NCBI RefSeq assembly: GCF_003432485.1
Contig: NZ_QVNQ01000002.1
Coordinates: 248,001-312,000, forward strand
DNA length: 64,000 bases
Origin: Actinomadura spongiicola
GTDB lineage: Bacteria; Actinomycetota; Actinomycetes; Streptosporangiales; Streptosporangiaceae
Direction: 5' to 3'
Shown: piece by piece, positions 9,476-12,400 of the stretch
Layout: each line of letters starts with the position of its first letter
Position numbering within the stretch: the stretch's first letter is position 1
Translations under genes and position numbers: made by a program
Notes under the pieces: model-generated
The model's database searches: none
What the model was told of the DNA's origin: nothing
Seen by the model: the letters and a program-made list of their open reading frames with translations, nothing else

Positions 9476-12400
9476 TTGGCAGCCTCGCGCAACGCCTCGA
9501 ATACCGCAACCGGTCCGAACCGCGTCTCCTTCGCGCGCATCAAGGAGCCGCTCGAAGTCCCGGACCTCCTTGCCCTGCAGACCAACTCCTTTGACTGGCT
9601 GCTCGGCAACGAGAGGTGGAAGGCCCGGGTCGAGGCGGCCCAGAAGGCCGGAAGTAAGAGCGTCCCGACCCAGTCGGGTCTCGAGGAGATCTTCGAGGAG
9701 ATCAGCCCCATCGAGGACTTCTCCGGGACCATGTCCCTCTCGTTCCGCGACCACCGGTTCGAGCCGCCCAAGTACTCCGTCGAGGAGTGCAAGGACAAGG
9801 ACATGACCTACTCCGCCCCGCTGTTCGTCACGGCGGAGTTCATCAACAACACCACGGGTGAGATCAAGAGTCAGACCGTGTTCATGGGCGACTTCCCGCT
9901 CATGACTCCCAAGGGCACCTTCATCATCAACGGCACCGAGCGCGTGGTCGTCTCCCAGCTGACCCGGTCGCCCGGCGTGTACTTCGACCGTGCCCTCGAC
10001 AAGGCGTCCGACAAGGACATCTACGGCTGCCGCGTCATCCCGAGCCGGGGCGCCTGGCTCGAGTTCGAGATCGACAAGCGCGACAACGTCGGCGTGCGCA
10101 TCGACCGCAAGCGCAAGCAGCCCGTCACCGTGCTGCTCAAGGCGCTCGGCTGGGACGAGGCGCGCATCCGCGAGCGCTTCGGCTCCTACGAGTCGATCAA
10201 CGTCACGCTGGAGAAGGACCACACCTCCGGCCAGGACGACGCGCTGCTGGACATCTACCGCAAGCTGCGTCCGGGCGAGCCGCCGACCCGCGAGTCGGCG
10301 CAGACCCTGCTGGAGAACCTGTACTTCAACCCCAAGCGGTACGACGTCGCCAAGGTCGGGCGCTACAAGATCAACAAGAAGCTCGGCCTCGACCTCGACA
10401 TGAAGCAGGGCACGCTCACCAAGGACGACATCGTCGCGACGATCGAGTACCTGGTGCGGCTGCACGCAGGTGAGGAGGAGGCGACCCTCGGCGCCGTCCC
10501 CGTCCCGATCGAGGTCGACGACATCGACCACTTCGGCAACCGGCGGCTGCGCACGGTCGGCGAGCTGATCCAGAACCAGGTGCGGCTCGGCCTGGCCCGG
10601 ATGGAGCGCGTCGTCCGCGAGCGGATGACCACCCAGGACGTCGAGGCGATCACTCCGCAGACGCTGATCAACATCCGGCCGGTCGTCGCCTCCATCAAGG
10701 AGTTCTTCGGCACCAGCCAGCTGTCCCAGTTCATGGACCAGACCAACCCCCTGGCCGGGCTGACCCACAAGCGGCGCCTGAACGCGCTCGGCCCCGGTGG
10801 TCTGTCCCGTGAGCGGGCGGGCATGGAGGTCCGTGACGTCCACCCGTCGCACTACGGCCGCATGTGCCCGATCGAGACGCCGGAAGGCCCGAACATCGGT
10901 CTCATCGGCTCGCTCGCCGCGTTCGGCCGGGTCAACCCGTTCGGGTTCGTCGAGACGCCGTACCGCAAGGTCACCGACGGCGTGGTCACCGAGCAGATCG
11001 ACTACCTCACCGCCGACGAGGAGGACCGCTACGTCATCGCGCAGGCCAACTCCCTGCTCAACGACGACGGCACCTTCGTCGACGACCGCATCCTGGTCCG
11101 CCGGAAGGGCGGCGAGGTCGAACTCGTCCCGTCCCGCGAGGTCCAGTACATGGACGTCTCGGCGCGGCAGATGACCTCCGTCGCCACCGCGATGATCCCG
11201 TTCCTGGAGCACGACGACGCCAACCGCGCGCTGATGGGCTCCAACATGCAGCGCCAGTCCGTCCCGCTGCTGCGCAGCGAGGCGCCGCTGGTCGGCACCG
11301 GCATGGAGTACCGCGCCGCGACCGACGCCGGTGACGTCATCACCGCCGAGAAGGCCGGTGTCGTCGAGGAGGTCTCCGCCGACTACGTGACCGTCATGAA
11401 CGACGACGGCACCCGGACGACCTACCGCGTCGCCAAGTTCAAGCGCTCCAACCAGGGCACCTGCTTCAACCAGAAGCCGATCGTGGAAGAGGGCCAGCGG
11501 GTCGAGGTCGGCCAGGTCATCGCGGACGGTCCCTGCACCGACAACGGTGAGATGGCGCTCGGCAAGAACCTTCTCGTGGCGTTCATGCCGTGGGAGGGCC
11601 ACAACTACGAGGACGCCATCATCCTCAGCCAGCGTCTCGTGCAGGACGACGTCCTGTCCTCGATCCACATCGAGGAGCACGAGGTCGACGCCCGCGACAC
11701 CAAGCTCGGCCCCGAGGAGATCACCCGGGACATCCCGAACGTCTCCGAGGAGGTCCTCGCCGACCTCGACGAGCGCGGCATCATCCGCATCGGCGCGGAC
11801 GTCGTCCCCGGCGACATCCTGGTCGGCAAGGTCACCCCCAAGGGCGAGACCGAGCTGACCCCCGAGGAGCGGCTGCTGCGCGCGATCTTCGGTGAGAAGG
11901 CCCGTGAGGTCCGCGACACCTCGCTGAAGGTGCCGCACGGCGAGCAGGGCAAGGTCATCGGCGTCCGGGTGTTCTCCCGCGACGACGGCGACGAGCTCCC
12001 GCCCGGCGTGAACGAGCTGGTCCGGGTGTACGTCGCCCAGAAGCGTAAGATCACCGACGGTGACAAGCTGGCCGGACGGCACGGCAACAAGGGCGTCATC
12101 TCCAAGGTCCTGCCCGTCGAGGACATGCCGTTCCTGGAGGACGGCACGCCGGTCGACATCGTCCTGAACCCGCTCGGCGTCCCCGGACGCATGAACGTGG
12201 GTCAGGTCCTGGAGACCCACCTCGGCTGGGTCGCGTCCCGCGGCTGGAAGGTCGAGGGCGACGACAAGGAATGGAAGAGGGCGCTCAAGGAGATCGGCGC
12301 GTCCGAGGCGCCGCCGTGGACGAACACCGCGACGCCGGTGTTCGACGGCGCCCGCGAGGACGACGTCACCGGTCTGATCGAGAGCACCCTGCCGAACCGC

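What the first reader, a model, noticed from the sequence alone, without database searches (positions are those of the whole stretch)
10709..10850. Housekeeping RpoB has three unusual residues in the rifampicin pocket, including Asn at the Ser531 position
The core reads FMDQTNPLAGLTHKRRLNAL. Against the common actinobacterial sequence, Asn518 is Thr, Ser522 is Ala and Ser531 (E. coli numbering) is Asn, while His526 is kept; the following block has Met for Phe. Substitutions at Ser531 are the commonest cause of rifampicin resistance in other bacteria. The gene lies next to rpoC, so this is not the accessory resistant copy known from some actinomycetes. The inference is natural rifampicin tolerance, perhaps linked to ansamycin production or exposure, or altered transcription of secondary-metabolite genes.
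Basis: partly seen in the sequence, partly recalled or inferred. Interest (0 to 1): 0.72.

Follow-up and report, generated by a model that had tools for sequence, protein, structure and literature searches.

The report
Altered RNA polymerase replaces its rescuer
The only RNA polymerase beta gene of this relative of Actinomadura carries an asparagine in the antibiotic pocket that likely weakens rifamycin binding, and among the relatives examined polymerases altered in this pocket occur almost only in genomes lacking HelR, the rescue protein that would otherwise pull the drug off.

Summary
The reading is right: the genome's sole rpoB, beside rpoC, has Thr518, Ala522, His526 and Asn531. Thr518 and Ala522 are ordinary: all 16 wild-type-pocket genus genomes carry them with Ser531. 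Asn531 is real but common: 35 of 54 genus genomes with a readable housekeeping rpoB. The new result is its partner. HelR, which removes rifampicin from RNA polymerase, is over its cut-off in 0 of 38 genus genomes with an altered pocket and 15 of 16 with a wild-type one. With 69 family genomes added, HelR accompanies 2 of 55 altered and 49 of 68 wild-type pockets; in 18 tree-independent contrasts HelR absence follows alteration 11.7 times, opposes it 0.2 times, and does not differ in 6.1. The window genome lacks HelR but keeps a rifampin monooxygenase. No AHBA-synthase-like gene was found. Altered target and target protection thus look like interchangeable answers to rifamycins. Against strong resistance: Streptomyces lividans naturally has this Asn, yet rifampicin-resistant mutants arise in it. 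No drug assay was possible.

The parts
9476..12943 (+). rpoB, sole copy in the genome, housekeeping position
12964..16836 (+). rpoC
10709..10850 (+). rifampicin pocket region of rpoB (RRDR)
10781..10783 (+). codon 531 (E. coli numbering), AAC = Asn, residue 436 of this protein
10766..10768 (+). codon 526, His kept
10742..10744 (+). codon 518, Thr, ordinary in the genus
10754..10756 (+). codon 522, Ala, ordinary in the genus
10823..10825 (+). codon 545, Met, the same in all genus haplotypes read
9962..9964 (+). codon 150 (numbering by recall), Thr; found only together with Asn531 among 54 genus housekeeping copies

Best explanation
The window's only rpoB encodes an RNA polymerase beta subunit with Asn at the Ser531 position, a change that likely weakens rifamycin binding, and the genome lacks HelR, the drug-removing rescue factor that such a change would make unnecessary. 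Shown: the residue, the single copy, no HelR over the cut-off, and the repeated exclusion of HelR by altered pockets in genus and family. Inferred: the bulkier Asn disturbs the Ser531 contact with the drug, so the enzyme keeps working at natural rifamycin levels; HelR then brings little gain and is lost or not kept. Genomes that carry the altered pocket in a second rpoB have a wild-type first copy and still keep HelR, presumably for that copy. The rifampin monooxygenase is kept because it acts on the drug, whatever the target. The protection is probably partial, and Thr150 may be an accompanying adjustment.
For: HelR over cut-off in 0 of 38 altered and 15 of 16 wild-type genus genomes. Over 123 genomes: 2 of 55 altered, 49 of 68 wild type; 18 independent contrasts, 11.7 for, 0.2 against, 6.1 without difference, median p 0.001. 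Two-copy genomes: main copy wild type 8 of 8, second copy altered 8 of 8, HelR 8 of 8. Outside the family, two Asn531 genomes lack HelR, 10 of 15 Ser531 genomes have it. Control: rifampin monooxygenase shows no such link, 27 of 38 against 11 of 16, p 1.0. S531N gives resistance to higher rifampicin in E. coli (PMC7073797, passages). A rifampicin-resistant rpoB mutation abolished rifampicin induction of helD in B. subtilis (PMC12802891, passages).
Against: G211 and G257 have Asn531 and HelR; 19 wild-type genomes lack HelR, G001 in the genus among them. G027 and G061 are two-copy but HelR-negative. S. lividans has this Asn and still yields rifampicin-resistant mutants. Keeping a rifamycin-inactivating enzyme is unexpected if the target were fully insensitive. 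In the genus alone only 5 supported contrasts exist, p 0.0625. The family genomes were chosen by HelR state, so they give no prevalence. Loss and non-acquisition cannot be told apart. Drug response of the window species is unknown; Actinomadura isolates vary (PMC12021271; PMC5592219; passages).
Confidence: 0.55

Rival explanations
1. Asn531 is a transcription-tuning allele. It changes initiation or pausing, as rif mutations that activate secondary metabolism do, and HelR drops out because an RNA polymerase recycling factor is less useful, or harmful, with that enzyme. Drug tolerance is a side effect.
For: rif-type rpoB changes alter secondary metabolism (PMC3536979, passages); HelD-type proteins recycle stalled polymerase without drug (PMC10719064, passages); S. 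lividans with this Asn is still open to rifampicin selection.
Against: Chemically different pocket changes at 516, 526 and 531 all go with HelR absence. Other HelD-like matches persist in the HelR-negative genomes, the window genome included; only the type named for rifamycin rescue is missing. 15 of 38 altered genomes keep an RAE-like element beside the rifampin monooxygenase.
Confidence: 0.17
2. Asn531 and HelR are linked only by descent: a neutral residue and an accessory gene that happen to mark the same clades.
For: The genus counts are not independent; G034 has a 100% identical RpoB, and the genus alone gives 5 supported contrasts, p 0.0625.
Against: At least 7 changes of pocket state and 6 of HelR in the genus, 20 and 25 in genus plus family, with contrasts 11.7 against 0.2. 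The same agreement in two Asn531 genomes outside the family.
Confidence: 0.12
3. Direct incompatibility: HelR reaches into the pocket region and works badly with, or poisons, polymerases altered there, so it is purged, whether or not the alteration resists the drug.
For: Class II HelD has a loop that reaches near the active site and is thought to distort the pocket (PMC12802891 and PMC8655204, passages); exclusion also holds for changes at 516 and 526.
Against: G211 and G257 carry both. Two-copy genomes keep HelR with an altered second copy, 8 of 8 readable.
Confidence: 0.1
4. Self-resistance of a producer of a rifamycin-type ansamycin.
For: Producers are expected to protect their polymerase (recalled).
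Against: Of 12 PF01041 hits in the genome 3 are full length, and all three rank sugar-type aminotransferases above AHBA synthase 1b9h. One arylamine N-acetyltransferase, with no other ansamycin gene noticed beside it (by eye). Asn531 is widespread in the genus.
Confidence: 0.03

Closest known systems
Position-531 rifampicin-resistance substitutions of RpoB (E. coli S531N)
   Same: Same residue and same change; S531N conferred resistance to higher rifampicin in E. coli (PMC7073797, passages).
   Different: Here it is the fixed state of a sole housekeeping gene shared by many species, not a selected mutant; resistance is not measured.
Natural Asn at this position in Streptomyces lividans/coelicolor and Mycobacterium branderi
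   Same: Native Asn in a housekeeping RpoB (PMC2667423, passages; chain 7vpd, S. coelicolor by recall; S450N in M. branderi, PMC13246000, passages).
   Different: Thr518, Ala522 and Thr150 accompany it here; S. lividans still yields rifampicin-resistant mutants.
Accessory rpoB(R)/rpoB2 of Nonomuraea and Nocardia
   Same: rpoB(R) is listed with H426N, S431N, F445M, S474Y and M581D (PMC3536979, passages); by that numbering S431N and F445M are residues 531 and 545, Asn and Met here too. PMC5431353 describes the second-cluster change as S531Y (passages), so the sources number it differently.
   Different: Here the gene is the sole copy beside rpoC, and His526 is kept.
HelR rifamycin target protection
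   Same: Serves the same end, transcription in the presence of rifamycin (PMC10719064, passages).
   Different: Not found here (best 386.6 bits against cut-off 750); the altered pocket appears to take its place.

Membership tests
Rifamycin-resistance RpoB allele (position 531 class) | substitution of Ser531 in the pocket | tested here: met
   AAC = Asn at 10781-10783
Rifamycin-resistance RpoB allele (position 531 class) | raised rifamycin MIC or IC50 | not testable with these tools
   no assay; E. coli S531N is resistant, S. lividans with native Asn yields rifampicin-resistant mutants
Accessory rpoB(R)/rpoB2 | second rpoB beside a wild-type housekeeping copy | tested here: not met
   one rpoB in the genome, next to rpoC
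Accessory rpoB(R)/rpoB2 | His526Asn | tested here: not met
   His526 kept
HelR target protection | HelR over the NCBIfam cut-off of 750 bits | tested here: not met
   best match 386.6 bits
Rifamycin inactivation (Rox) | rifampin monooxygenase over the NCBIfam cut-off of 800 bits | tested here: met
   896 bits at G000:C1:244381-245793
Rifamycin inactivation (Rox) | rifamycin-associated element upstream | tested here: inconclusive
   one site with 2 mismatches 86 bp upstream; the reversed control pattern gave 5 matches genome-wide at that tolerance
Rifamycin inactivation (Arr) | Arr domain PF12120 | tested here: not met
   0 of 65 genus genomes
Ansamycin producer | AHBA synthase in the genome | tested here: not met
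   three full-length DegT-family proteins, all nearer sugar-type aminotransferases

The most novel reading that the evidence does not exclude
Rifamycin resistance by altering RNA polymerase and by rescuing it with HelR are interchangeable evolutionary states: actinobacteria have switched between them many times, so the presence of HelR forecasts a wild-type drug pocket in the housekeeping enzyme. Genomes that duplicate rpoB put the alteration in the spare copy, keep a wild-type main copy, and therefore keep HelR. This would explain why Nonomuraea carries both a resistant polymerase and an RAE-linked HelR gene.
Probability: 0.55. Interest if true: 0.75.

Novelty: new variant of a known kind. 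Interest (0 to 1): 0.6.

Why it matters
Pocket mutations and HelR are each known, but I saw no report of their exclusion in the listings or in the passages read; most subscription papers are not held. If true, it is a natural, many-times-repeated experiment on altering a drug target against protecting it, it predicts rifamycin response from two genes, and it accounts for the remark in PMC8655204 (passages) that Nonomuraea keeps an RAE-linked helD despite a resistant polymerase subunit. It also shows that a residue treated as a resistance mutation in some bacteria can be the fixed housekeeping residue in others, which matters when genomes are screened automatically.

Tried and rejected
Three unusual residues: rejected for Thr518, Ala522 and Met545, which are common.

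Loss of rifamycin-inducible control in Asn531 genomes: suggested when a strict core search found no RAE before the window genome's monooxygenase, dropped when a search allowing 2 mismatches found one 86 bp upstream and 15 of 38 altered genomes proved to have a site within 151 bp of the gene. At 2 mismatches chance sites are as frequent as real ones (control columns), so position is the evidence for the window's site.

Spread of the Asn allele by recombination: in the pocket region Asn-Asn pairs are not closer than the rest of the gene predicts (ratio 0.95; Ser-Ser 0.93). In the N-terminal region the ratio is lower for Asn-Asn (0.85) than Ser-Ser (1.18); left open.

HelR loss footprint by synteny: in three HelR-bearing relatives the flanking genes are not shared, apart from one pair 53% identical over 147 residues, so gain and loss cannot be told apart. 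Of six comparisons of rpoB2 neighbourhoods only G017 and G014 share flanking genes.

The FAD monooxygenase beside the second rpoB of G007 is not a rifampin monooxygenase by its model (316.8 bits against 800).

Rows moved or dropped: G025 was first counted as wild type, but its full-length copy is not beside rpoC. Left out of the pocket counts: 11 of 65 genus genomes (G005, G011, G019, G022, G025, G026, G027, G028, G038, G041, G061) whose housekeeping pocket was not read; most show fragments of two copies, G019 only one fragment of a divergent copy. HelR is over cut-off in 9 of the 11, not in G027 and G061. In the family 69 of 227 non-genus genomes were read: 11 loci returned and 58 picked from its list by HelR state and mostly single copy. 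One search scored only the two best candidates per genome, and its list was cut. The second copies of G076 and G120 were not counted. G181, counted as HelR-positive, matches only model positions 1-483. For one search I gave 17 of the 80 loci.

Full report
Observation. The stated coordinates translate as reported and lie in an intact RpoB of 1155 residues at 9476-12943 (NCBIfam rpoB), with rpoC 20 bases on (12964-16836). Asn at E. coli position 531 is codon AAC at 10781-10783; His526 is kept. One rpoB was found in the genome. The closest named RpoBs are those of Actinomadura formosensis (96%) and A. craniellae (95%); the window's own record is not named.

What is ordinary. Thr518 and Ala522 occur with Ser531 in 16 of 16 genus genomes whose pocket is wild type, and widely elsewhere. 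Met545 is in every genus haplotype read. Of 65 genus genomes (the window's own included), 54 had a housekeeping rpoB readable beside rpoC: 35 have Asn531 and 19 Ser531. Three of the 19 carry Gln516 and Asp522, giving 38 altered and 16 wild-type pockets. On a tree of rpoC plus rpoB without the pocket, pocket state changes at least 7 times and Asn/Ser at least 8 times. There is no sign of allele transfer in the pocket region. The 16 wild-type copies use TCC or TCG, so AAC needs two base changes from them.

Second copies. Some genus genomes have two rpoB genes. In eight, the copy beside rpoC and a second copy were both readable: the main pocket is wild type in 8 of 8 and the second altered in 8 of 8, as Thr146/Thr150/Asn531/Met572 in five (G007, G008, G024, G051, G052), Asn531/Met533/Met572 in G017, Gln516/Ser518/Asp522 in G048, and Ser511/His517/Thr522/Gln526 in G014, whose second copy is split into two reading frames. 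Altered pockets thus sit in the sole copy or in the spare one. Eight genomes have a sole copy with a wild-type pocket.

HelR. The NCBIfam HelR model passes its cut-off in 24 of 65 genus genomes, all at 1236 bits or more; the next best match is 427. It is present in 7 of 8 single-copy wild-type genomes (not G001), 8 of 8 readable two-copy genomes, 9 of 11 unresolved genomes (not G027, G061), and 0 of 38 single-copy altered genomes. The window genome is one of the 38; its best match, 386.6 bits, is a HelD-like paralogue. All 65 genomes have HelD-family matches, so what is missing is the rescue type.

Family test. HelR passes the cut-off in 147 of 250 family genomes. I read the pocket of 69 family housekeeping rpoBs outside the genus, all beside rpoC. 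With HelR: 34 wild type, 2 Asn531 (G211, G257). Without HelR: 15 altered (10 Asn531, three with His526Asn, one Asp516Ala, one Asp516Gly) and 18 wild type. For group g52 I expected, before reading the stretches but without logging it, altered pockets in G153, G176 and G224 and wild type in G195 and G211; four of five held, G211 did not. Over 123 genomes HelR accompanies 2 of 55 altered and 49 of 68 wild-type pockets. Independent contrasts: 18 pairs differ in pocket state, with HelR absence following alteration in 11.7, opposing it in 0.2 and not differing in 6.1 (median p 0.001); 22 pairs differ in HelR, with 12.0, 0.1 and 9.9 (median p 0.0005). In the genus alone 5 of 5 supported pairs agree, p 0.0625. 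The trees are quick searches.

Other families. Of 17 named actinobacterial genomes outside the family that I picked, the two with Asn531, Streptomyces hainanensis and Janibacter limosus, lack HelR; of 15 with Ser531, 10 have it (pockets, HelR). The PDB chain 7vpd has Asn and 8dy7 has Ser (S. coelicolor and S. venezuelae by recall). PMC8655204 lists five helD genes in S. venezuelae, one of them RAE-linked, and four in S. coelicolor (passages). Mycobacterium branderi has Asn here (PMC13246000, passages); its HelR state was not tested.

Drug context. Arr: 0 of 65. A rifampin monooxygenase passes its cut-off in 47 of 65, the window genome included (896 bits), and is unrelated to pocket state (27 of 38 against 11 of 16, p 1.0): a useful control, since an enzyme that destroys the drug should help either polymerase. 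The rifamycin-associated element lies within about 250 bp upstream of HelR in 6 of 7 loci scanned, about 1.4 kb upstream in the seventh (G026), and before the monooxygenase in 4 of 4 relatives scanned. In the window genome a site with two mismatches lies 86 bp upstream; the reversed control pattern gave five matches genome-wide at that tolerance, so its position is the evidence. In G002, G010 and G021 the element precedes a gene that looks by eye like a glycosyltransferase. Lineages with an altered pocket thus still carry a rifamycin response, which suggests exposure. An own ansamycin is unlikely: three full-length DegT-family proteins match sugar-type aminotransferases better than AHBA synthase, and there is one arylamine N-acetyltransferase.

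Phenotypes in print. In PMC12021271 the Actinomadura isolates tested were generally resistant to rifampicin, one A. madurae excepted (passages); in PMC5592219 one Actinomadura isolate was intermediate and another resistant only to chloramphenicol (passages). Their rpoB sequences were not seen, so these do not test the residue.

Mechanism. S531N gave resistance to higher rifampicin in E. coli, and resistance rose with side-chain bulk at this residue (PMC7073797, passages). HelR removes rifampicin from RNA polymerase (PMC10719064, passages). The simplest account is that an enzyme that binds the drug weakly gains little from a factor that takes it off. Shown here: residue, copy number, HelR absence, repeated exclusion. 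Inferred: weaker binding in this species, and dispensability as the cause. The effect is probably partial: S. lividans has Asn naturally and still yields rifampicin-resistant mutants, N442Y among them (PMC2667423, passages), and the monooxygenase is kept. Thr150, in 26 of 35 Asn531 and 0 of 19 Ser531 housekeeping copies, may be an accompanying change; its effect is unknown.

Verdict. The residue itself is a common natural variant; what deserves attention is its near-complete exclusion of HelR. Direction of cause, loss against non-acquisition, and the drug phenotype remain to be tested.

Noticed in passing
window 198-9122 (+): A run of ORFs upstream of rpoB looks like an mce-type transport operon; 4864-6186 and 6156-7625 have MlaD domains, the others resemble them by eye.
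   Followed up: no
window 19975-20994 (+): A Y-family DNA polymerase (impB/mucB/samB domains) lies about 3 kb downstream of rpoC.
   Followed up: no
window 9962-9964: Thr at position 150 of RpoB occurs only together with Asn531 among 54 genus housekeeping copies, in 26 of 35; it may be a co-adapted change.
   Followed up: partly
L171 and G007, G008, G024, G051, G052: The second rpoB of these genomes carries Thr146, Thr150, Asn531 and Met572 and lies roughly 20-70 kb from a rifampin monooxygenase gene (places).
   Followed up: partly
L277 (G002), L284 (G010), L292 (G021): A rifamycin-associated element precedes a gene that looks by eye like a glycosyltransferase, possibly a rifamycin-inactivating one.
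   Followed up: no
G027 and G061: The only genus genomes with fragments of two rpoB genes but no HelR over the cut-off; the assemblies break inside rpoB, so the housekeeping pocket could not be read, which makes them a test of the account.
   Followed up: no
L274, L275 (G076): A family genome with two rpoB genes, both with Asn531, and no HelR.
   Followed up: no
L144, L174 (G014): The second rpoB of G014 is split into two reading frames and has an unusual pocket (Ser511, His517, Thr522, Gln526), perhaps a decaying copy.
   Followed up: no
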